Notes under the pieces: model-generated
What the model was told of the DNA's origin: nothing
What the model saw: the letters and a program-made list of their open reading frames with translations, nothing else
Databases searched by the model: none
Translations under genes and position numbers: made by a program
Virus record (IMG/VR): IMGVR_UViG_3300015360_000170
Coordinates: 1 to 26,561 of that record
Source: a virus
DNA length: 26,561 nucleotides
Direction: 5' to 3' (one strand)
Shown: positions 1-26,476 of the stretch, piece after piece
How the letters are laid out: each line of letters opens with the position of its first letter
Position numbering within the stretch: position 1 is the first letter of the stretch

Positions 1-2334
1 AATAATCTAACAGAAAGAGGGAAATCTAAGGCTGGTGTAAAGTCAGATCAAAAATTAATAAGAGAATTAAAGAAACCTCAGATTCTAATTGATTACAACA
101 GAATAGTTGAGAAATATTTCAGGCGATATATAGATTTATGCAATAATATAAGGTTAGTTCTAACTGATATTCATACTGGAAATATTGGGATATCCAAGTA
201 TAATGGTGATCTAAAAATACTAGATTACATGGCACTTAAACTTGATGGTGGCGATAATATTTCTAGGTTAACTGACCCTAAATTTCAATCTACTTATGAC
301 CAATTAAAAAAATCAATAATAATGAAAAAAATATCAAATACTGGGGATTTAATAGTTGCTAGTAAGACTACCCTAATTCCAGATATATACGATTACATAT
401 TAGAAGCAGTAGGAGTGATACCAGAGAAACTTCTAATAACTGTTGATAAGATAACAAAATTCCAATTTGAATGGGTTAATGACTTTATTAAGAGATTCAG
501 AACAAAGGAATTTGTAGGTGATAAAACTGATTTAGCTAAGAAGTATAAGTTCATGAATTATAATAATGTTCATGCCAAAGAGATGAGAGATAAAGATAAA
601 ATAGGGTTGTTTAATCTACAAAAGAAAAGTAAAGATTTATACTACGAGTCTGATTTTGAACAATTTAGCAGTGAACAATTCAAAGAAGTTGAAGATATGA
701 CATTAAAAGTCAGAATCATAATTCAATTTCAGGGTACATTTAAAGGATATAACTCAGATGGTGTTAAGATTGATCAATTATTCAATGAACAAACCAAGGA
801 AACTCATATAACAATATACTATAAATCTCCAGTTGAAATTAATCGTGAAATGCCAGATAAATCTATCGGAGAATTAGAGTTATTCATGAATAAATCTATA
901 GTTAAGTCCAAAATACTAATTAACAAAGAATTAACAAAGAACAGGCAACTTTATTTCAAAGATAGAAGTTCTATAGGTGATAATTATGTCACCACCGATA
1001 GTGTTATAGTTAAAGACAGCCCCGAACTAGAGAATTTTGTTGATATTCTGGATAACTCTCAACCCCTAAACATAAATGCCATGATATCTTCTACCTACAC
1101 AGAATTAGAGTATAATTCCAATAGAAGAGCATCAATAAGAGATACTAAAGCTTTTATTTTCTCCCAAATACTTAAAAACTTTGAACCTACCACTTTCATG
1201 TCTATGATTAAACTTGAAAAGGAAGATTTACAAAAAGCTATTCTTAAAGTTTGTTCAGATATCTCACAGATTCCTATGATGAATATATCCAACGATAAAG
1301 ATTACGAAGCTACACCTAAATTAGCCTTTCAGAGTAAAACGGTAACTGGTAGTAATACTATGACTTCTGGTGTGGTTATAAAATTAGCAAAATCATTTAT
1401 TAAGAAATATAATGTGGATGCTAACATGGATGCTAATAGCTTTAATTTAGACTTTTTTACCAAATTCGGTAAGATGTTTAATGAAATAGGTTTAGACATG
1501 GAGAAAAAGGTCTACAAGGTATTATCTCACCCTAACTTTAGCCTACAGTATAATAAAGCAAATGTTAATAGATTGTATAAGATTATTGTAAAAGCAATTA
1601 TATCTATCATTATTAATGATGGTATAGCAGCGTTAACATCTTACATTGGAGTACAAAAAACTTCTTCTCATATTCTAATTAACACTAAAAAATTAGGACT
1701 AGGATTACTTAATGAGTTCAATATTTACTTTATGAGAGAAAATCAATCATTTAGTAAGACGCTAAATGTAAACGATATAGTAATTAAACATGAGTTTAAT
1801 TCATTTGATTATTGGGCAATACAAAATAATTATGGTAAATTATCTCTAGACAAAAAATTAAAAAAATGGATAATAGGGATAGAGAAGAATCCTATAAAAA
1901 ATTACGGTGAACCCCATCCTTCTGGTGAATTTACACCTAACACAAAGTTAGGATTTGAGGATAACCTATTTGCAGAATTACGAGACAAACATTTTATGAT
2001 TTCTATACAAAAACAATTAGAAGAAATAGAAACAACTAAACCTTTAGATTATGATTATATCTTAGCTGAAAAAGGAGATAAAGACCCTAAAACATACTGG
2101 GGACTTAAAAAACCTAAAAGACAAGAAAAAGGTCCTTTTAATGATTATTATCTGAAACTATATCCTGGACAAAAAGAAAGATTAAACAAAGCAAAGAGAA
2201 GAGAAACTCAGAGAAAATATAATGATAATAATAAAAGAAGGATCGCTCTTAAAAATATAAAGGATAAGCAAGAAAATGATGCTAGAATAGCCAACAAAAA
2301 TGTAAACGCCAAAGCACAACCAAATCAAAAATAA
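1..2334 (+). CDS. Large protein with kinase-like N-terminal signature, 5' end outside window
   Basis: The frame is open from base 1, so the first ATG at 229 is an internal Met and the gene begins upstream of the window; at least 777 codons are present. Just before that ATG the translation reads LTDIHTGNIGI and then DLKILDY: Asp at 166-168, Asn at 181-183 and a second Asp at 223-225. This spacing resembles the catalytic loop and metal-binding Asp of protein-kinase-like/aminoglycoside-phosphotransferase folds (D-x-H-x-x-N ... D). That is an inference, because the ATP-binding lobe would lie outside the window. The remaining roughly 700 residues match nothing I recognise. The last 60 residues are a Lys/Arg/Asn-rich, probably disordered basic tail. 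No signal peptide or membrane segment is visible in the part present. It is followed after 15 bases by a small ORF, probably in the same transcript. Confidence 0.8.
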   Translation, partial: NNLTERGKSKAGVKSDQKLIRELKKPQILIDYNRIVEKYFRRYIDLCNNIRLVLTDIHTGNIGISKYNGDLKILDYMALKLDGGDNISRLTDPKFQSTYDQLKKSIIMKKISNTGDLIVASKTTLIPDIYDYILEAVGVIPEKLLITVDKITKFQFEWVNDFIKRFRTKEFVGDKTDLAKKYKFMNYNNVHAKEMRDKDKIGLFNLQKKSKDLYYESDFEQFSSEQFKEVEDMTLKVRIIIQFQGTFKGYNSDGVKIDQLFNEQTKETHITIYYKSPVEINREMPDKSIGELELFMNKSIVKSKILINKELTKNRQLYFKDRSSIGDNYVTTDSVIVKDSPELENFVDILDNSQPLNINAMISSTYTELEYNSNRRASIRDTKAFIFSQILKNFEPTTFMSMIKLEKEDLQKAILKVCSDISQIPMMNISNDKDYEATPKLAFQSKTVTGSNTMTSGVVIKLAKSFIKKYNVDANMDANSFNLDFFTKFGKMFNEIGLDMEKKVYKVLSHPNFSLQYNKANVNRLYKIIVKAIISIIINDGIAALTSYIGVQKTSSHILINTKKLGLGLLNEFNIYFMRENQSFSKTLNVNDIVIKHEFNSFDYWAIQNNYGKLSLDKKLKKWIIGIEKNPIKNYGEPHPSGEFTPNTKLGFEDNLFAELRDKHFMISIQKQLEEIETTKPLDYDYILAEKGDKDPKTYWGLKKPKRQEKGPFNDYYLKLYPGQKERLNKAKRRETQRKYNDNNKRRIALKNIKDKQENDARIANKNVNAKAQPNQK

Positions 2335-2716: not shown

Positions 2717-4624
2717 ATGAAAAAAAGTTATATGACTAAGATTAAACATTTAAAAGTTATTTTAGATAATGAAGGAGAAGCTTATACCGAAAATCTTCTG
2801 ACAGATACTATATATGTGTCGGAAAAATTAGATGGTATAAGTTTCAATATGATGAAAATTAATGAAGAAATTTATTTCTATAAAAGAGATACAAGTAAAC
2901 CTATAAGTTTAATAGACAGAATAGTTATTTCTTTGTACGAACCCCCAATAAGGCTAATTAATACATTAAGTACAGAAATTAAATCAAAAATACCAGAGAA
3001 CTTTTTATTTACATTCGAGTATTTTCCTAACACTAACCCAATTAATATTAAGTATGATACCACACCTAAAAACAAATTAGTTCTAAGTAGTGTTGTTAAT
3101 TGGAAAGAAAATAAAATCTTCATAGACATACACAAGTGGGCTGATTTATTTGGTGTCTCCTGTGTTAAGTTTCTTAATGGTAACTATAAAGATCCAAAAA
3201 CTACCTTGTCAGCTATTGATACAGATAAGGCTAAAAATATTATATCTCTTATAGGTCAGAATAAGATCCAAGAAAAGATATTTAGTATGTTTCCTAAGTG
3301 TGATGGTAAAGGATTATTAAATGATAATCCTGGTGGACCAGTAGAGGGTTTTGTTTTTCTAACAAAAAACACAAAATATCCTTATTTAAAATTAATCACC
3401 ACCGAATACTTTGATCAATATATTGCTGGTAGAGATACAATAATTAGTAATAGAAAATCACAAGACTTAGTTAATTTAGTGATAATTGATTTTGCTAGAC
3501 ATTACTCAACTATGGAGAGTTTAGATTTTATTAATAAGTTAGAATTATCTCACGCAGCCGAATTTTCAGATAACCAAGATGTAGCCTATTTAGAGGTTAT
3601 ATTTGAATTATTTAATAGGTATATGACAGATAATAGTAGAATGTGGGTGGGTGTAAATTTTTCGAAACCTACCTTTGCTAATTCAGAATTTTTTAATCTT
3701 AATTCTAGTTTAATTGGTAATGTAATTACCCTAAAAATCCTACATGAATCAGAAAATTTCAAAGATATACTAAAAATCTTAATAGGATACTTCAGAAAAA
3801 ATAAGACTAAATTAAGTAATAATGATATAAGCAATAATGCCTATGATAATATATCTAACTTAATGGCTATTATTCAGAATAAGATAAAAAAACCTAAGTA
3901 TGTTGATAAAATCATTAAGATTGATAACAAAAAAATAGAAGTTACACCAAAAAAAGAAATGTGTTATATTAACTTCATCGAAGAAACAGAAAATCACATA
4001 AAAATAGACATAGAAAAAACATTGTTAGTTGAGTTTCTAAGTGAAAGATATGGTTGCGACTTAAAATTAGAAGATATATCATCTTCTATTGGTACTTCTT
4101 TTGGTGATTATAATATAGGAACTTCCCCAGTTAATATATTTCCAGGAAGATTTCAACCTTTCCACAATGGGCATCTTAAAGTTATAAAGAAAATGTACGA
4201 CCAAAATAAAAAACCAACAGTTTTAGTAGTAGTTACTAGAGATGACAAGGAACACACTTATAATCAAGAATTACATTCTAAGATATTTAAAGATATTATC
4301 AGTAAAAATGATGAGATGATTAAAGATATAGTATTCACTAAAAAAGGCTGGATTAAAGATATAGTTAGTAGCATAAGAGATAAAGACTACGAACCAGTAT
4401 TGTGGGGTTATGGTGATGACAGAAAAGATAATTACTCAACTCAAATAGCTGACTGGGCAGACAAAATACAATCAACTGTAAAAGGTTACCACGTTGATAG
4501 ATCAGATGATAATATTTCTAGTACAGATATCAAGAAAAAAATATTAAATGGAGATGATTTGGAAAAATTTTTACCTGCTGAAGTATTAGTACATATAGAT
4601 TCTATAAAAAAATCCATAAAATAA
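2717..4624 (+). CDS. Bifunctional RNA/DNA ligase-like nucleotidyltransferase - NMN adenylyltransferase-like fusion
   Basis: This 635-residue protein has two enzyme domains. Residues about 30-230 show the covalent nucleotidyltransferase pattern of ATP-dependent ligases: motif I EKLDG with candidate nucleophile K37, a motif III-like FTFEYFP, motif IV EGFVF (E210-F212) and a motif V-like YLKLI with K225. Residues about 470-630 look like the nucleotidylyltransferase (HxGH) superfamily: GRFQPFHNGHLKV with H483-N-G-H486, and ISSTDIKKKI (601 onward), the ISST-type motif of NMN adenylyltransferases such as NadM/NadR. The region between (about 230-470) is unassigned. Known family roles are RNA or DNA end sealing through a lysyl-AMP intermediate, and NMN + ATP giving NAD plus pyrophosphate. 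That one polypeptide does both is inferred from one uninterrupted frame. The second domain could instead use another nucleotide, as related cytidylyltransferases do. The gene ends before a 95-base gap and the polymerase operon. Confidence 0.8.
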   Translation: MKKSYMTKIKHLKVILDNEGEAYTENLLTDTIYVSEKLDGISFNMMKINEEIYFYKRDTSKPISLIDRIVISLYEPPIRLINTLSTEIKSKIPENFLFTFEYFPNTNPINIKYDTTPKNKLVLSSVVNWKENKIFIDIHKWADLFGVSCVKFLNGNYKDPKTTLSAIDTDKAKNIISLIGQNKIQEKIFSMFPKCDGKGLLNDNPGGPVEGFVFLTKNTKYPYLKLITTEYFDQYIAGRDTIISNRKSQDLVNLVIIDFARHYSTMESLDFINKLELSHAAEFSDNQDVAYLEVIFELFNRYMTDNSRMWVGVNFSKPTFANSEFFNLNSSLIGNVITLKILHESENFKDILKILIGYFRKNKTKLSNNDISNNAYDNISNLMAIIQNKIKKPKYVDKIIKIDNKKIEVTPKKEMCYINFIEETENHIKIDIEKTLLVEFLSERYGCDLKLEDISSSIGTSFGDYNIGTSPVNIFPGRFQPFHNGHLKVIKKMYDQNKKPTVLVVVTRDDKEHTYNQELHSKIFKDIISKNDEMIKDIVFTKKGWIKDIVSSIRDKDYEPVLWGYGDDRKDNYSTQIADWADKIQSTVKGYHVDRSDDNISSTDIKKKILNGDDLEKFLPAEVLVHIDSIKKSIK

Positions 4625-4719: not shown

Positions 4720-6432
4720 ATGCTATTAGATCAAAAATATAAAGATGGAGTATTGTCTAACTATTACATAGATTCAGATGATAAAGTTAAAGTAAAAACC
4801 ATAAAAGTTGAACCGTACAGATGGATTACCTTAGATGGACCAGATAAATCAGCGTCCAGAACTTACAAATCCTGGAAAAACGAAAGAGTCAAAAAAGTTA
4901 AAGCCAAATCTCTTGATAAGTATACTAAAATGGAAGCACTATGGGAGTTACCTACAGGGCAAAGAGATAGGATATTTAGTCAATGTACACCACTAGAAGC
5001 ATTTGTAGATATAGAAGTAGATTTCGCAAAAGAGTTTCCAAGACCAGAAGAGGTTAAGTTTGGGGTGTCTACTATAGCAACTACTTGGGTTGATAGGAAA
5101 TCAAAGGTTGTGAAGATCATACTTCAAACCTTAAAAGGATTAGATTTAGGAGAAAAATCTTTTATCACAAGAGCAGTAAAAAAATATTTTATAGACTTTA
5201 ATTTAGATTTTGATATAAAATATATTTTTCATCAATCAGAACAGCAGTTATTAGATGTATTCTTTTCTAAAATATGCCCAAAGTTTGGAGTTATCACTGG
5301 ATGGAACTTTGTTGATTTTGACTGGCACTACTTATGGAACAGAGCAATATCTGTTGGGTTAGAGCCTTCAGAATACTTCCCAGATATACATATATCATAC
5401 GACAAAGGATCTAAGGGTGTAGGTTTTCCTTCTAATATTGGAATTATAGACCTAATGGATATATTTACTAAGTTTGATAGATCCATAGATGTTAAAGAAT
5501 CAAAAGCTCTAGAATTTATAGCTAATGAAGTTTTAGGTATAGGTAAAGTATCTCTGAATCAAAGTTTAGATATAGTTTACGAAGAAAATTTCAAAGAATA
5601 TTGCTTTTATAATATTATTGATAGTGTTCTTTGTTTACTGATTGAGGATAAAAAGAAAGTCCTTAAGCTTTACTATGCTCTTTGTAATACATCCTTGTGT
5701 GATATCAGGAATACACTTAAACCTACCAGATCAACAGAAACAGTATTCTCTAATAAATTCTATGAGTCCAACAAAGTTATACCTAGTCCTGGTTGGGACG
5801 AACCTAAAACAAAAAAAGAAACCTACGAAGGTGCTTATGTTATGGTTCCTATAGCTGGAATATACAAATGGGTTATCGCACGAGATTTTCAATCCTTATA
5901 TCCAACATCTGCTAGAATAGGTTCAATATCTCCAGAATCCTATGTAGGTAACTGGTACAAAACCTACCTGACATCAAACTCAATGATGGAAGAACACAAA
6001 GAAGATTACTTAAACTACTGTGTAAGCAGAAGATATATTGAATCAAAATATAGTATCGAAAGTTTATACACCAAAGAAAATGGAGATATTGTTAATGTAA
6101 AAACCAAAGGTATTTATAGTGGACAAGAAGAAGTCCATGGTAATTGGTTTTCAGAATACGTGTCTAGCTTATCAGATAATCTAGAGCACTACAGAGAATA
6201 CCTGACAGACCAGAAAAAAATAAAGAGTGATAAAAAATACTATATCGATCCCAAGGGTTCAGTTTTTGATTTAACTGAAGACCCTGTATACAAGACTATT
6301 TTAGATAAGTTTCACTCAGACAGACAAGACCATAAAAAAGTTAAGAAACTACTAGGCAAAGAAAAAGATAAACTAGAAAAACTTTACATGGAAATACAAG
6401 AACGAAAACTAAATAATAAAACCCGAATATGA
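4720..6432 (+). CDS. 43: Family B DNA polymerase, N-terminal half (3'-5' exonuclease, palm motif A, part of fingers)
   Basis: This 570-residue protein is the front part of a T4 gp43-type replicative polymerase. Exo I is FVDIEVD with D97/E99. Exo II is GWNFVDFDWHY with N196 and D201. Exo III is YNIID with Y297/D301. The proofreading active site therefore looks intact. Motif A of the palm is ARDFQSLYP with metal-ligand D389. Near the end, FHSDRQDHKK (R535, K539) matches the fingers segment that in RB69 polymerase holds R482 and K486, which contact the incoming dNTP. The protein stops about 25 residues later, at the expected tip of the fingers, and lacks motifs B and C. Those are in the separate gene at 11913-13109; together the halves total 968 residues, close to T4 gp43 (about 900). 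The stop overlaps the next gene's start (ATGA). Confidence 0.92.
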   Translation: MLLDQKYKDGVLSNYYIDSDDKVKVKTIKVEPYRWITLDGPDKSASRTYKSWKNERVKKVKAKSLDKYTKMEALWELPTGQRDRIFSQCTPLEAFVDIEVDFAKEFPRPEEVKFGVSTIATTWVDRKSKVVKIILQTLKGLDLGEKSFITRAVKKYFIDFNLDFDIKYIFHQSEQQLLDVFFSKICPKFGVITGWNFVDFDWHYLWNRAISVGLEPSEYFPDIHISYDKGSKGVGFPSNIGIIDLMDIFTKFDRSIDVKESKALEFIANEVLGIGKVSLNQSLDIVYEENFKEYCFYNIIDSVLCLLIEDKKKVLKLYYALCNTSLCDIRNTLKPTRSTETVFSNKFYESNKVIPSPGWDEPKTKKETYEGAYVMVPIAGIYKWVIARDFQSLYPTSARIGSISPESYVGNWYKTYLTSNSMMEEHKEDYLNYCVSRRYIESKYSIESLYTKENGDIVNVKTKGIYSGQEEVHGNWFSEYVSSLSDNLEHYREYLTDQKKIKSDKKYYIDPKGSVFDLTEDPVYKTILDKFHSDRQDHKKVKKLLGKEKDKLEKLYMEIQERKLNNKTRI

Positions 6433-8429: not shown

Positions 8430-8717
8430 ATGAGTAAGAAAATGATAGAAGGTTTACAACTACTAGATGATAGAATCTTGATAAAGCCTAACCCACACAA
8501 AGAAAAAACAGAATCTGGGATATATATCCCAGATTCTGTTCAAAGAGAAACAGAACAAGGTATGGTGTGTGCTGTAGGAGATTCGGAAGATGTTACTCTT
8601 AAAGAAGGTGATGTTGTTATTTTTAATAAACACTCGGGAGAGGAAATAATAATTAATAATGAAGATTATCTATTAATGAAGGAATTTAATGCTTATGCAA
8701 TAATAATCGAAAACTAA
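8430..8717 (+). CDS. groES: GroES-type co-chaperonin (copy 1)
   Basis: This 95-residue protein matches bacterial GroES from end to end: LLDDRILIKP at the start, the mobile-loop region KTESGIYIPDSVQ, GMVCAVGDSEDVTLKEGD, VVIFNKHSGEE and a closing EYLLM...AYAIII. GroES heptamers cap GroEL. T4-like phages encode a replacement (gp31 in T4) needed to fold the major capsid protein, and TESG also occurs in the gp31 mobile loop. No GroEL gene is present, so the host chaperonin would be the partner. Of the three co-chaperonin-like genes here, this is the most bacterial-looking. Its leader carries TAAAGACATG, shared with two other genes. The mobile-loop codons lie in a perfect 34-base palindrome. The histidine kinase gene begins 3 bases after its stop. 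Confidence 0.92.
   Translation: MSKKMIEGLQLLDDRILIKPNPHKEKTESGIYIPDSVQRETEQGMVCAVGDSEDVTLKEGDVVIFNKHSGEEIIINNEDYLLMKEFNAYAIIIEN
8507..8540. repeat. Perfect 34-base palindrome inside GroES copy 1
   Basis: Bases 8507-8523 read as the exact reverse complement of 8524-8540. The arms contain CAGAATCTGGGATA and the centre is TATATATA. The palindrome covers the codons for the mobile-loop segment TESGIYIPDSV. As RNA it could form a stem of about 15 base pairs; as DNA it could be a dyad protein site. Confidence 0.85.
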
Positions 8718-8719
8718 TA

Positions 8720-9835
8720 ATGAATAATCCAATAAGTAACATGGTTAATACGGATTTTACCTTTGAAGATATATCTAATATCTCAAATCTAATGGGGTTT
8801 GGTGTTATAGTGTATAGTATAAAAGGTAAACCTATATTTATTAACGATTTCGTGTCTACTTATTTGGGTTACTCATCTTTAGTTGATGTTGATAATGTTG
8901 TAGTTATTCCTAAAGAAGAATCTTTTAAGTGTTCTTGTGAAGAATGCGAATTTATACCAAAGATAGTCAGAGGTGATATTAATCATTATACTTTTGATAA
9001 AAAATACAATATTAATGGTAAACAATTATGGGCAAGGGTTACTGCTACTAAAATATCATGGAAAGGCTTAACTCATATTGTAACTATGCTACAAGATATT
9101 ACAGAGGTGAAACTATATCAGGAAAAACTAATCTTAGCTAAAGAAGAAATGGAGGAGTTAATATATTTAACTTCTCATGACCTAAGAGGACCAACAAACT
9201 CTATAAGATCTTTAATTGATATGTTTAATATTGAATACCGAAAAACTATAAAAGATAAAGGTGGAAACGGGATTAAATACTTAGATTTTATATCTAAATC
9301 AGTAAATAGGTCCAAGAATCTAATAGATAATTTACTGGATTATTCTACTACACTTAAAAGTACAGAAGATAAGAAAAAAGAACATATAAACATAAAAAAC
9401 ATCCTAGTTGGCATTTGTGAAGATCTAGAGACATACAATAACGATCATAATTTTGAGATAAAGCTGGAAATAGAAGTTAATGTAATATTTGCACATAAAT
9501 CCGAAATCTATGCTTTATTTCAAAATTTAATATCCAATGCTATTAAATACTCAAAAAAAAACCACAAAAACTTAATAACAATTAAATCTGACATAGAGGG
9601 TGATAATTGGATTTTTCATGTATCTGATACTGGTTTAGGTATTGAAGAAAAATACTTTAATAAAATTTTTCTAGTATTTAAAAGGTTGCACACTAAAGAA
9701 GAAATTGAAGGTACTGGTATAGGGTTAGCACATTGTAAGAAAATATTAGAATTACATAACGGTGAAATTGAGGTTGACTCTGTTTATGGTGAAGGTAGTG
9801 TTTTCAGAGTTACTATACCAATTACAGGAGAATAA
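8720..9835 (+). CDS. Soluble sensor histidine kinase (PAS - HisKA - HATPase)
   Basis: This 371-residue protein contains a complete two-component sensor kinase core. Residues about 25-130 look like a PAS sensor domain ending in the typical ...MLQDITE. A short linker helix leads to the H-box LTSHDLRGP, with phospho-acceptor H153. The catalytic domain has the N-box NLISNAIKYS (N273), G1 SDTGLGI (D303), F-box FLVFKRL and G2 GTGIGL (G331), ending in EVDSVYGEGSVFRVTIPI. No transmembrane segment or signal peptide is seen, so it should be cytoplasmic. The PAS domain carries a cysteine cluster C71-x-C73-x-x-C76, which might bind metal or sense redox state. No response regulator or receiver domain is encoded in the window, so a host regulator or a phage gene elsewhere would be the target. 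It is closely spaced with the GroES genes on both sides and probably co-transcribed. All key catalytic residues look intact. Confidence 0.93.
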   Translation: MNNPISNMVNTDFTFEDISNISNLMGFGVIVYSIKGKPIFINDFVSTYLGYSSLVDVDNVVVIPKEESFKCSCEECEFIPKIVRGDINHYTFDKKYNINGKQLWARVTATKISWKGLTHIVTMLQDITEVKLYQEKLILAKEEMEELIYLTSHDLRGPTNSIRSLIDMFNIEYRKTIKDKGGNGIKYLDFISKSVNRSKNLIDNLLDYSTTLKSTEDKKKEHINIKNILVGICEDLETYNNDHNFEIKLEIEVNVIFAHKSEIYALFQNLISNAIKYSKKNHKNLITIKSDIEGDNWIFHVSDTGLGIEEKYFNKIFLVFKRLHTKEEIEGTGIGLAHCKKILELHNGEIEVDSVYGEGSVFRVTIPITGE

Positions 9836-9852
9836 AAAATAAAAAATAGATA

Positions 9853-10167
9853 ATGAATAATGCAGAAAATGTAACACTAGAATCAATAAAACCTATAGGT
9901 CACAGAGTCCTAATTAAACCTGACCCAGAAAAAGAAGTATACGAAGACTCAGGCTTGATAATCCCAGAGACCCTAAGAAAGATGATGCTAATAGGTACTA
10001 TAATTGCAACTGGTGAAGGTACTAGATCAAGCCCAATGAAAGTTAAAATTGGTGACAGAGTAATTTATCCTAGAGCAGTAAAACAAAAAACTTGGATAAT
10101 TCAGGGTGAAACATACCTATTTTGTATACAGCAAGATTTAATAATGAGAGAGATTAATCAAAAATAA
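9853..10167 (+). CDS. GroES-like co-chaperonin (copy 2)
   Basis: This 104-residue protein has the GroES layout: IKPIGHRVLIKPDPEKE, then a mobile-loop-like EDSGLIIPETLRK, GTIIATGEG, VKIGDRVIYP, a strand pair, and the terminal segment ETYLFCIQQDLIMREI. It diverges clearly from copy 1 in the C-terminal half. Co-chaperonins cap GroEL; different loops would change affinity or client choice. It lies 17 bases after the histidine kinase gene and is the last gene before a strong terminator hairpin, so it closes the operon that begins with the polymerase N-terminal half. The call is firm for family, weaker for function. Confidence 0.85.
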   Translation: MNNAENVTLESIKPIGHRVLIKPDPEKEVYEDSGLIIPETLRKMMLIGTIIATGEGTRSSPMKVKIGDRVIYPRAVKQKTWIIQGETYLFCIQQDLIMREINQK

Positions 10168-11912: not shown

Positions 11913-13109
11913 ATGATACACAAAAATGAGCCTTTAACCGAAGAAGAAATAAGCACCTTATCAGAAGAACAAATCCTAGAAAGAATAGATCATATAAATA
12001 TCAGACTAGGTGTAGAGTTTAACACCGAACAAAGTCTTAAATTATGGATGAACTCTTCTTACGGTACTTTCGGATCACCTTTCTTTATACTCAGTAACCC
12101 TAGAGTAGCTGAAGCAATCACATCAACAGGGAAATCCATTATTCTACATACTGAAAAAATAACCAATGATTATTTCATGAATGATTGGCATAAAGATACC
12201 GAGCTACACAAAAATTTAGGTATCACACAAAAAGTTAAACCACTTGAAAATCCTGTAATAGTTTACGCTCATACAGATTCTAATTATTTTAGTTTTGATG
12301 AGCTCTTAACCTCATGTGGTATGGATAAAATGCCAGAAAAAGAAACAAGAGATTTTCTGATTAAATTAGACTCTACTTTTTTATCACCTTTTTATGATAA
12401 GTCCTTTGACGAATTTACTTCCAAAAGAAATCTTAAAAATGACCTAGTATTTGAAACTGAATCTATAGCTAGAAAAATGGTAATTCTAGCAGTAAATATT
12501 AACTTCCAGAATATATCTATGTACGATGGTCAATTCAGCGACTCAGATAAAGTTGTCTTGAAGTACACTGGAGGTAAGATTAAATCCTCAACAACTCCAA
12601 AATTTGCTAGAAATATACTTAAATCATTGTTTGAGATGATTTCTGATCATAGACATGACATTACTATACCAATGCTAACCAAAAAACTTAAAGAGATAAA
12701 AAAAGAAATAATGGTAGTATCTATAGATGAAATAGCAGAAACAGGTAAAATGACAAATTACGAACAATATGTAATAGAGGATAAAGATAACCTTATAACA
12801 AAAAAAGGTACTCCATTTAGAGTATCAGCAGCTGCAAAATACAACCATGCATTATACAAACAAAAAGACTCCGTGAGAAATAGGTATAAACCAATTATTG
12901 ATAGTAAGATAAAAGTTTACTCCACAACAAAAGGTGAATATTTCGCTTATAATCTAGGTGAATATCCTTTGGAGTTTGCACCACCACCAGATAGAGAGGG
13001 GCTATTTGATAAGTTTATACTAAAAACAGTTAATGATATTCTAGAGAGATCCATGAAAGTCTCACCTTTAAGTAGAAGTCTAGTTTATGCTAAACCGTTA
13101 TTTGGTTGA
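11913..13109 (+). CDS. 43: Family B DNA polymerase, C-terminal half (fingers motif B, palm motif C, thumb)
   Basis: This 398-residue protein supplies what the gene at 4720-6432 lacks. Motif B is KLWMNSSYGTFG (K43, N47, Y50, G51). Motif C is YAHTDSNYF with the essential metal ligand D122. SSTPKFARNIL and PFRVSAAAKYNHAL match thumb-region segments of T4/RB69 gp43. The protein begins about 40 residues before motif B, at the opposite side of the fingers tip from where the N-terminal half stops, so the pair would reassemble as one enzyme with a break in an exposed loop. Motif C has His (H120) where family B enzymes normally have the first Asp of DTDS; the second, metal-binding Asp is kept. Split gp43 genes are known in some T4-like phages (for example Aeromonas phage 25). 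It is bracketed by hairpins on both sides. Confidence 0.92.
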   Translation: MIHKNEPLTEEEISTLSEEQILERIDHINIRLGVEFNTEQSLKLWMNSSYGTFGSPFFILSNPRVAEAITSTGKSIILHTEKITNDYFMNDWHKDTELHKNLGITQKVKPLENPVIVYAHTDSNYFSFDELLTSCGMDKMPEKETRDFLIKLDSTFLSPFYDKSFDEFTSKRNLKNDLVFETESIARKMVILAVNINFQNISMYDGQFSDSDKVVLKYTGGKIKSSTTPKFARNILKSLFEMISDHRHDITIPMLTKKLKEIKKEIMVVSIDEIAETGKMTNYEQYVIEDKDNLITKKGTPFRVSAAAKYNHALYKQKDSVRNRYKPIIDSKIKVYSTTKGEYFAYNLGEYPLEFAPPPDREGLFDKFILKTVNDILERSMKVSPLSRSLVYAKPLFG

Positions 13110-13200: not shown

Positions 13201-13623
13201 ATGTTTCAAACTGGTAGCGATTTACCTAACTCAGATGATTCTGAAGATAAACCAGGTATATCAGAAGACACCCAAATCAAAGAGGAATCTTTCGATTATC
13301 TCGATATTAAAATGGAAAGAATATTAGGAATAAAATATTCACTATTAGTTAAGTCAGCAAGATTAGGTATAAATGTTGACCTCATTATTAGAATAGATTA
13401 TTTGTCCATTGATTTTGATTTAATCTTAAACGGAGAATTAGCATGCTCTAATTTTTGTAAGTTACAAAATAACGGAGCTAATGGTGTGGAGTTAAAAATA
13501 AAAGTAGATGAATCTAATTACACCCAACTAAAAGATCCTACTACATTCTATAAAGAACTAATAAATCAAATAACAAAATATTATGAAAATAGAACCAATA
13601 GAAAAAGTCAAACAAGAATATGA
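13201..13623 (+). CDS. Hypothetical acidic protein upstream of GroES copy 3
   Basis: This 140-residue protein is one I do not recognise. The first 30 residues are Asp/Glu/Ser-rich and likely disordered (SDLPNSDDSEDKPGISEDTQ). The rest alternates short hydrophobic strands and helices, with a basic end (YYENRTNRKSQTRI). There are no paired metal ligands, although single Cys residues occur around the motif CSNFCK. Its end overlaps the next gene's start by 41 bases in another frame, suggesting translational coupling with the co-chaperonin. Confidence 0.65.
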   Translation: MFQTGSDLPNSDDSEDKPGISEDTQIKEESFDYLDIKMERILGIKYSLLVKSARLGINVDLIIRIDYLSIDFDLILNGELACSNFCKLQNNGANGVELKIKVDESNYTQLKDPTTFYKELINQITKYYENRTNRKSQTRI

Positions 13624-14011
13624 TGTTTTTGATTCATTTCTAATAGTAAGAGTACAATATCTACCAGCAGAACTTAGAACCGAGTCTGGACTTATCTTAG
13701 GCTTTAATAATACCCCAGCAGAAAAAACTATATATTTTGGTGGAGTAATTATAGCTGTAGGTGATGCTGTGGTTAACAAAAAACTTAAGTTAGGTATGAG
13801 AGTTTTAGTTAAAGCATTTTCTGGTCAGAAAGTATATCATCTAGGTGATGAAAACGCTGATAATGACTATGTTAGGTTTGATGAATCTGACATAGCAGCA
13901 GTAATGGATCAGACTGTTGATCTAACACCAATCAAGAACTTCACATTGATTGATAGAGAAGCATTAAAATTAAAAAATCCTAACTTTCCTATAAATAATA
14001 TAACATTATAA
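13583..14011 (+). CDS. GroES-like co-chaperonin (copy 3, extended)
   Basis: This 142-residue protein is longer than GroES (about 97) and T4 gp31 (111). Residues about 15-65 read as a co-chaperonin: FLIVRVQYL, a mobile-loop-like RTESGLILGFNNTPAEK, then GGVIIAVGDAV and LKLGMRVLVKAF. TESGL is also the T4 gp31 loop motif. The C-terminal 50 residues (after DNDYVRFDESDIAAVM) extend beyond the family and are unassigned. No internal Met before the conserved part offers a later start, so the 41-base overlap with the upstream gene is probably real. It lies 4 bases before uvsX. This copy looks closest in style to phage gp31-type proteins; the family call is good but divergence is high. Confidence 0.75.
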   Translation: MKIEPIEKVKQEYDVFDSFLIVRVQYLPAELRTESGLILGFNNTPAEKTIYFGGVIIAVGDAVVNKKLKLGMRVLVKAFSGQKVYHLGDENADNDYVRFDESDIAAVMDQTVDLTPIKNFTLIDREALKLKNPNFPINNITL

Positions 14012-25999: not shown

Positions 26000-26476
26000 T
26001 TGAAACATATAATACCTAAGTGGGGTAAATGTTTATCAGGAACATTTTCACCGAAAAATAACACCAAATACAACGGAAAATACCCCATCATATATAGGTC
26101 TAGCTTAGAGTTAAGATTTATGAAAATCTGCGATAGTAGTCCTAGCGTTTTATCATGGAGTAGTGAAAGTTATATAGTTAATTATGTTTCTCCTAAAGAC
26201 GGTAAAAGCCACAGGTATTATCCAGATTTTGTTATTAAAGCTAAGAATGCCGATAATTATGTTGAGAATATAGTTATAGAAATTAAACCAGACTCTCAAA
26301 CTAGAGCACCTATACCACCTAGTAATATTAGTAAGAAAGGTCTAATTAATTACAATAAAAAAGTATTAGACTGGTATATTAATAAAGCTAAGTGGGAAGC
26401 AGCTAAAAGAGAATCATCTCTTAATGGATCTAAATTCATGATAATTACTGAGAAATGGTTAAATAATACTAACTAG
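26000..26476 (+). CDS. 4: Head completion nuclease-like protein (T4 gp4-like)
   Basis: This 158-residue protein is near T4 gp4 in length (about 150). GTFSPKNNTKYNGKYPIIYR, then SSLELRFMKICDSSPSVLSW and SESYIVNYVSPKDGKSHRYY follow that family, and YPDFVIK ... IEIKP is a PD-(D/E)xK nuclease core with the Glu, Asp, and E-x-K in the right order. gp4 is added to filled or nearly filled heads and stabilises DNA before tail attachment. The start is TTG at 26000: the previous gene's stop is in the same frame 4 bases upstream and the next in-frame ATG (near 26128) would remove conserved residues. The gap to the upstream gene is only 3 bases. Confidence 0.75.
   Translation: MKHIIPKWGKCLSGTFSPKNNTKYNGKYPIIYRSSLELRFMKICDSSPSVLSWSSESYIVNYVSPKDGKSHRYYPDFVIKAKNADNYVENIVIEIKPDSQTRAPIPPSNISKKGLINYNKKVLDWYINKAKWEAAKRESSLNGSKFMIITEKWLNNTN

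What the first reader, a model, noticed from the sequence alone, without database searches (positions are those of the whole stretch)
2717..4624. One protein joins a ligase-type nucleotidyltransferase to an NMN adenylyltransferase-like domain
Seen: a single uninterrupted 635-codon frame with EKLDG (K37), EGFVF and YLKLI in the first part and GRFQPFHNGH plus ISSTD in the last part. Known: the first set is diagnostic of covalent nucleotidyltransferases (RNA/DNA ligases, capping enzymes); the second of NMN adenylyltransferases. Some phages carry NAD-rebuilding enzymes that counter NAD-depleting defences, and T4 RNA ligases counter tRNA-cleaving defences. Inference: a phage enzyme that couples nucleic-acid repair with NAD supply, or an NAD-using ligase with its own NAD synthesis. 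I do not recall this fusion as a described enzyme.
Basis: partly seen in the sequence, partly recalled or inferred. Interest (0 to 1): 0.78.

Follow-up and report, generated by a model that had tools for sequence, protein, structure and literature searches.

The report
Phage RNA-ligase/NAD-enzyme fusion protein
One large-phage protein joins an RNA-ligase-type domain to an enzyme domain of the kind that makes NAD; the same fusion recurs in many marine phages, whose versions carry signs of being packed into the virus head and injected with the DNA.

Summary
Window 2717-4624 is one intact 635-codon gene. AlphaFold2 plus structure searches place residues ~1-243 in the RNA-ligase nucleotidyltransferase fold (Naegleria ligase, T4 Rnl2, T4 Rnl1, Trl1; Z 11-12) and residues 469-635 in the HIGH-superfamily adenylyltransferase fold (NMNAT/PPAT/NadD; Z 15-16). 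The fusion is not an assembly error: 55 fused ORFs lie in other viral contigs and one in a 462-kb phage. The substrate is open: NCBIfam scores NadM and CoaD equally, both far below cut-off. 'NAD-using ligase with its own NAD synthesis' is disfavoured: no Ia domain, and each active site is lost separately in relatives. New here: in marine relatives a hydrophobic-x-E-A/G/S site (T4 prohead-protease type) precedes the HIGH domain (28/31), the C-terminus ends in a capsid-targeting-like tag (29/35), and a ligase-motif gene, typically with a T4-type targeting leader, lies just upstream (51/51). Cyanophage homologues of the HIGH domain carry such leaders and have been found in virions by mass spectrometry. 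The family is therefore probably an injected two-enzyme counter-defence protein. The window's own copy lacks these marks, so packaging is inferred for the family, not shown for this protein. No biochemistry exists.

The parts
2717..4624 (+). gene of the 635-aa fusion protein
2807..3445 (+). RNA-ligase-type nucleotidyltransferase domain (residues ~31-243)
   Evidence: AF2 model m6665f0499b78, Foldseek and VIA-align
2825..2827 (+). K37 codon, predicted adenylated lysine of motif I (EKLDG)
   Evidence: K in 37 of 42 aligned members; D or N in 4, gap in 1
2879..2890 (+). YKRD (55-58), motif Ia-like; K56 invariant in 42 of 42
3014..3025 (+). FEYF (100-103), motif III-like acidic strand; E/D/Q101
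3344..3358 (+). EGFVF (210-214), motif IV
3383..3397 (+). YLKLI (223-227), motif V
3449..3889 (+). all-helical domain after the nucleotidyltransferase (residues ~245-391)
   Evidence: secondary structure of the model; no confident fold match of its own
3890..4120 (+). linker (392-468), mostly predicted disordered; holds LLVEFLSE at 436-443, a weak targeting/cleavage-like match
   Evidence: pLDDT below 50 at 393-447 and 454-465
4121..4621 (+). HIGH-superfamily adenylyltransferase (NMNAT/PPAT-like) domain, residues 469-635
4163..4174 (+). HNGH (483-486), the (H/T)xGH active-site motif
4514..4537 (+). ISSTDIKK (600-607); relatives have ISATxVRN
4720..6432 (+). N-terminal half of split family B DNA polymerase, the conserved downstream neighbour (context)

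Best explanation
A two-enzyme phage protein of the injected 'polyvalent effector' type. The N-terminal domain is an ATP-dependent RNA-ligase-type nucleotidyltransferase expected to adenylate itself on K37 and seal RNA breaks, such as tRNAs cut by host defences. The C-terminal domain is a HIGH-superfamily adenylyltransferase, most likely joining NMN and ATP to NAD. The two work side by side on linked damage from abortive-infection defences (cut RNA, drained NAD), not as one coupled reaction. In the family the protein is probably packed into the head, cut by the gp21-like prohead protease before the HIGH domain, and injected with the DNA. Shown: intact gene, both folds (predicted models), intact motifs, recurrence, cleavage-site and targeting-tag signatures in relatives. 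Inferred: ligation, the substrate of the HIGH domain, packaging and cleavage, and the counter-defence role. Packaging is weakest for the window's own copy, which has only a poor site.
For: Folds. Intact ligase motifs in P0001 and K37 in 37/42 members. Intein inserted exactly after motif I in L064 (SEKPDG|CLKYDT...FANEILVHN|SSFS), a site choice typical of active sites. Recurrence of the fusion. Site [LIVM]xE[AGS] 10-30 residues before the HIGH domain in 28/31 non-redundant relatives against 7.6% of background windows, with variable P2. Targeting leaders at 98/852 N-termini against 33/4260 internal windows. C-terminal tag in 29/35 fused proteins against 10/811 other ORFs. gp21-family protease in 15/16 records. 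T4 rule L/I-x-E, targeting peptide of 10 residues, and C-terminal processing of Alt: PMC9026906. Cyanophage NMNAT-like proteins found in virions: S-CREM2 ORF154 (PMC10665884), whose N-terminus is MKNFSSFLTEADE, and S-SCSM1 (PMC9602691). Ligase-motif and HIGH genes are neighbours in Kyanoviridae, DLP_6, Melnitz-2 and Ps15.
Against: No biochemistry. Most relatives have an eroded motif I (D39 kept in 3/42, G40 in 13/42) and D for E in motif IV, and the huge phages L002-L004 lost K37, so ligation may be lost in much of the family. NadM and CoaD models score equally and far below cut-off. P0001 lacks the clear cleavage site, the targeting leader and the C-terminal tag. No NadV found in 11 of the 16 records, all of them possibly incomplete contigs. 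The published mass-spectrometry papers themselves allow contamination of CsCl preparations. N-part profiles do not align significantly with the neighbouring ligase-motif families.
Confidence: 0.5

Rival explanations
1. The N-terminal part is a degenerate ligase fold used as a scaffold or targeting module (for example binding the prohead core or RNA); only the HIGH domain is catalytic.
For: Motif I reads K-x-[QSA]-[AG] in most relatives and motif IV is DG or ES; the huge-phage clade has D or N for K37. W01-W04 carry separate PF09414 RNA ligases. The full-length LR756500 fusion has N at the K37 position but keeps HxGH.
Against: K37 is kept in 37 of 42 and the intein in L064 sits in motif I; P0001 keeps motifs I, III, IV and V. 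L069 keeps K but has lost HxGH, so the ligase part can outlive the HIGH part.
Confidence: 0.28
2. The HIGH domain is not an NMNAT but adenylylates another small molecule (phosphopantetheine or an unknown one) or an RNA 5' end.
For: CoaD model 40.9 bits against NadM 39.1; ISSTDIKK is CoaD-like; Foldseek's top hits are PPAT. NadV was not found in the marine contigs, whereas PMC9503650 reports that NadM phages always carry NadV.
Against: Best PDB sequence and profile hit is NadM MJ0541 (E 8e-6 single sequence, 5e-9 profile); GRFQPFHNGH is the NadM signature; contigs are incomplete, so missing NadV is weak evidence.
Confidence: 0.27
3. A coupled NAD+-dependent ligase that recycles its own NMN through the attached NMNAT domain.
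For: Chemically tidy: NAD+ ligases release NMN, which NMNAT turns back into NAD with ATP (established knowledge, no tool result).
Against: No Ia domain: only about 31 residues precede the motif I strand and no NAD-ligase family appears in Pfam hits up to E 10. Foldseek's best matches are ATP-dependent RNA ligases. L001 and L069 lose one active site each.
Confidence: 0.05
4. An assembly or frameshift artefact joins two genes.
For: The window is one metagenomic contig.
Against: Same fused order in 55 ORFs from other contigs (some near-identical) and in a 462-kb phage genome, at 24-29% identity.
Confidence: 0.01

Closest known systems
T4 RNA ligase 1/2, Naegleria RNA ligase, fungal Trl1 (RNA ligase superfamily)
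   Same: predicted nucleotidyltransferase fold (Z 11-12), order of motifs I, III, IV, V
   Different: no significant HMM match to solved ligases; below Pfam RNA_ligase cut-off; joined to a HIGH-type enzyme
NadM (archaeal NMNAT; phage NadM-Nudix as in RB16/RB43) and CoaD/PPAT
   Same: fold, (H/T)xGH and ISSTx motifs
   Different: below every equivalog cut-off; partner is a ligase fold, not Nudix or a kinase as in NadM and NadR (PMC9503650)
PHROG 455 / PHROG 395 gene pair of Kyanoviridae (KWDG ligase-motif protein + 'cytidyltransferase')
   Same: ligase-like motifs beside a HIGH-type adenylyltransferase carrying a capsid-targeting-like leader
   Different: usually two genes; the ligase-motif family shows no significant profile similarity to the N-part
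T4 internal proteins and Alt; polyvalent injected proteins
   Same: targeting leader, [L/I]xE cleavage sites and C-terminal processing signals in the relatives or their neighbours
   Different: different enzymes; marks not seen clearly in the window's copy
UniProt A0A6J5NWC5, 'Cytidyltransferase-like domain-containing protein', uncultured Caudovirales phage
   Same: its model matches the whole N-part model (TM 0.77) and it is 623 aa long with a cytidyltransferase-like domain, so the same architecture
   Different: no functional description

Membership tests
RNA ligase / covalent nucleotidyltransferase superfamily | motif I KxDG with catalytic lysine | tested here: met
   EKLDG, K37
RNA ligase / covalent nucleotidyltransferase superfamily | motifs III, IV and V in order | tested here: met
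   FEYF 100-103, EGFVF 210-214, YLKLI 223-227
RNA ligase / covalent nucleotidyltransferase superfamily | nucleotidyltransferase fold | tested here: met
   Z 12.3 Naegleria, 11.7 T4 Rnl2, 11.2 T4 Rnl1; Foldseek E 6.7e-5 for T4 Rnl1
Pfam RNA_ligase PF09414 | gathering score 27 bits | tested here: not met
   16.4 bits
RNA ligase | lysyl-AMP formation and sealing of RNA | not testable with these tools
   needs purified protein
HIGH-superfamily nucleotidyltransferase (CTP_transf_like) | curated profile score and (H/T)xGH | tested here: met
   30.3 bits against cut-off 21; HNGH; fold Z 15-16
NadM NMN adenylyltransferase (TIGR01527) | equivalog cut-off 181.2 bits | tested here: not met
   39.1 bits
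CoaD / PPAT (TIGR01510) | equivalog cut-off 103.3 bits | tested here: not met
   40.9 bits
NAD+-dependent DNA ligase | N-terminal Ia domain binding NMN | tested here: not met
   about 31 residues before the motif I strand; no such Pfam hit up to E 10
T4-type capsid-targeted, gp21-processed protein | targeting leader or [L/I]xE site in the window's own protein | tested here: inconclusive
   only LLVEFLSE-R at 436; no leader, no C-terminal tag
T4-type capsid-targeted, gp21-processed protein | cleavage-type site and terminal tag in the fused marine relatives, with a gp21-family protease in the genome | tested here: met
   28/31 sites, 29/35 C-terminal tags, gp21-family protease in 15/16 records
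T4-type capsid-targeted, gp21-processed protein | presence in the virion | not testable with these tools
   only published data for cyanophage homologues of the HIGH domain (PMC10665884, PMC9602691)
Phage NadV-NadM salvage pathway | NadV (NAMPT) in the same genome | tested here: inconclusive
   present in 5/16 relatives' records, all from the large phages; the window is a 26.6-kb fragment

The most novel reading that the evidence does not exclude
A head-packaged polyprotein, cut by the prohead protease, that delivers an RNA-sealing enzyme and an NAD-making enzyme into the cell with the phage DNA, so that both tRNA-cutting and NAD-draining defences are countered before any phage gene is expressed; a second ligase-motif protein with a targeting leader is encoded beside it.
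Probability: 0.35. Interest if true: 0.82.

Novelty: new variant of a known kind. Interest (0 to 1): 0.62.

Why it matters
RNA repair and NAD rebuilding are two known phage counter-defences; finding them joined in one protein, with prohead-protease sites and capsid-targeting tags in relatives, suggests they are delivered pre-made. It gives a concrete role to test for PHROG 395/455 and the cyanophage 'cytidyltransferases', which are common, unexplained and already seen in virions.

Tried and rejected
Single-sequence scan of viral contigs with P0001: nothing; the alignment A1 found 127 relatives. A1 in genome contigs: none. hhalign of the N-part against the two ligase-motif neighbour families: not significant; the 99% match is void because one sequence was in both alignments, and without it nothing remained. 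Profile searches of the N-part against PDB sequences found no ligase; the fold rests on the structure model. The gene upstream in the window (229-2334) has no relatives found, and the 429-aa ligase-motif neighbour is not in the window. PADLOC: no hit. Tree: the window's protein is a very long branch, place unsure. A window-wide search for targeting leaders gave nothing convincing.

Full report
What is there. Window 2717-4624 is a single open frame of 635 codons. The window is a complete 26.6-kb IMG/VR record of a T4-like phage: split family B polymerase, RecA/UvsX-like recombinase and ribonucleotide reductase, with further genes that by eye look like T4-type replication genes.

Fold of the two parts. 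The C-terminal 167 residues meet Pfam CTP_transf_like. The full AlphaFold2 model (pLDDT 74) gives PPAT, NadD and NadM at Z 15-16; the best PDB sequence and profile match is the NMNAT of Methanocaldococcus jannaschii. NCBIfam cannot separate CoaD (40.9 bits) from NadM (39.1 bits), both far below cut-off, so the substrate is not settled. The N-terminal part was folded alone (pLDDT 79, pTM 0.79). Its best matches among solved structures are RNA ligases: Naegleria RNA ligase Z 12.3, fungal Trl1 11.8, T4 Rnl2 11.7, T4 Rnl1 11.2; DNA ligases follow at about Z 8-9. Among viral models the top two are an uncharacterised phage protein and a 623-aa 'cytidyltransferase-like' phage protein, followed mainly by RNA ligases. 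A helical domain (about 245-391) follows, then a mostly disordered linker of about 75 residues.

The fusion is real and recurrent. A 462-kb phage genome (LR756500) encodes a full-length relative at 28% identity. An alignment-guided scan of IMG/VR gave 127 relatives, 80 of them fetched. In 55 of the ORFs the ligase-type part and the HIGH motif are in one frame; many contigs are near-copies, and 30 of 41 different fused sequences remain after clustering at 92% identity. Others are split into two genes (L054, L057, L067, L072) or lack the HIGH domain (L002-L004 and their clade).

Active sites. K37 is K in 37 of 42 aligned members and K56 in all; D39 and G40 of motif I are mostly replaced, and motif IV is often DG. 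P0001 keeps the canonical motifs. L064 has KPDG in motif I, and an intein interrupts its gene exactly there. Each active site can be lost alone: LR756500 has N for K37 but keeps HxGH; L069 has EKLDA but SFEFFTNEH in place of GRFQPFTLGH. The two reactions are therefore unlikely to be obligatorily coupled. The four huge-phage records, in which K37 is lost, all carry other Pfam RNA ligases; seven other contigs show none.

Signs of packaging in relatives. Just before the HIGH domain most relatives have LNEAL, INEAL, ITEAL, ILEAL, VNEAL or ILEGL. The pattern [LIVM]xE[AGS] occurs there in 28 of 31 non-redundant proteins against 7.6% of background windows; position P2 varies while E is invariant. This resembles the rule of the T4 prohead protease gp21, which cuts after L/I-x-E (PMC9026906). 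A gp21-family protease is encoded in 15 of 16 relatives' records. Of 35 distinct fused proteins, 29 end in a tag such as MTFEQFINK, seen in 10 of 811 other ORFs; T4 Alt is also processed at its C-terminus (PMC9026906). Neighbouring genes often begin like the T4 targeting peptide (MKHIKLFEQFVNEA, MKKVKLFESFIAEA): 98 of 852 N-termini against 33 of 4260 internal windows. Directly upstream of the fusion gene, within 0.85 kb in all 51 fused ORFs with enough DNA, lies a protein of about 429 aa, typically with such a leader, and with EKTDGQN, ARNK, MELIY, EGIVF and KLTG motifs.

Independent support from known phages. Kyanoviridae 'cytidyltransferases' begin MKSYKEFLSEA or MKKFSAFLKEA, and the gene before them encodes a KWDGAP...EGYV...KLVDR protein; PHROG 455, of unknown function, spans both. 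The pair also occurs in Stenotrophomonas phage DLP_6 (targeting-like leader on the ligase-motif protein) and Methylophilales phage Melnitz-2 (leader-like starts on both), and a similar arrangement in Menderavirus Ps15. The cytidyltransferase of S-CREM2 was detected in virions by mass spectrometry (PMC10665884), and its sequence begins MKNFSSFLTEADE; NMNAT-like proteins were also detected in virions of S-SCSM1 and others (PMC9602691). The authors caution that contamination is possible.

Limits. The window's protein is a very divergent member (end branch 2.37). It lacks the clear cleavage site, the leader and the C-terminal tag; the nearest thing is LLVEFLSE at residue 436. The conserved 429-aa neighbour is not in the window. 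Packaging is thus inferred for the family and only possible for this copy. The N-part and the neighbouring ligase-motif families do not align significantly as profiles, so the latter are called ligase-like from motifs alone.

Conclusion. The fusion claim is confirmed at the level of folds and motifs. The most likely role is an injected, two-enzyme counter-defence protein combining RNA sealing with NAD (or related dinucleotide) synthesis. Catalysis, substrate and delivery remain untested.

Noticed in passing
window 4720-6432 and 11913-13109: Family B DNA polymerase split in two genes with ribonucleotide reductase, two Cpn10 genes, a histidine kinase and others between the halves; in relatives the N-terminal half is also a separate gene, and in L103 an apparent C-terminal half precedes the N-terminal half.
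   Followed up: partly
window 8720-9835: Phage-encoded sensor histidine kinase (HATPase_c E 2e-23, HisKA, PAS) between two co-chaperonin genes.
   Followed up: partly
window 8430-8717, 9853-10167, 13583-14011: Three different Cpn10/GroES-like genes in one 26-kb stretch.
   Followed up: partly
L064 7232-7636 and 7995-9218; L064 16898-17851: Intein halves in the ligase-motif site and an apparent intein C-terminal end in the polymerase C-half of the same phage; in the first, the two intein parts lie in separate ORFs.
   Followed up: partly
L006, L013, L017, L034, L038, L046 flanks: Runs of small genes that begin with a T4 capsid-targeting-like leader, suggesting a large set of head-packaged proteins of unknown function.
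   Followed up: partly
L087 1408-2328, L064 6243-7169, L068 6307-7254, L105 5803-6516: Genes that by eye look like pol-beta-type nucleotidyltransferases near the ligase/HIGH pair in different phages; the S-CREM2 one (ORF156) was found in virions.
   Followed up: no
L108 351-1511 (LR756500 near 35.6 kb): CoaD-like N-terminus fused to a longer C-terminal part that looks HD-like, in the same 462-kb phage that has NadV.
   Followed up: no
window 26000-26476: TnsA-like endonuclease-fold protein, possibly the T4 gp4-type head completion protein.
   Followed up: no
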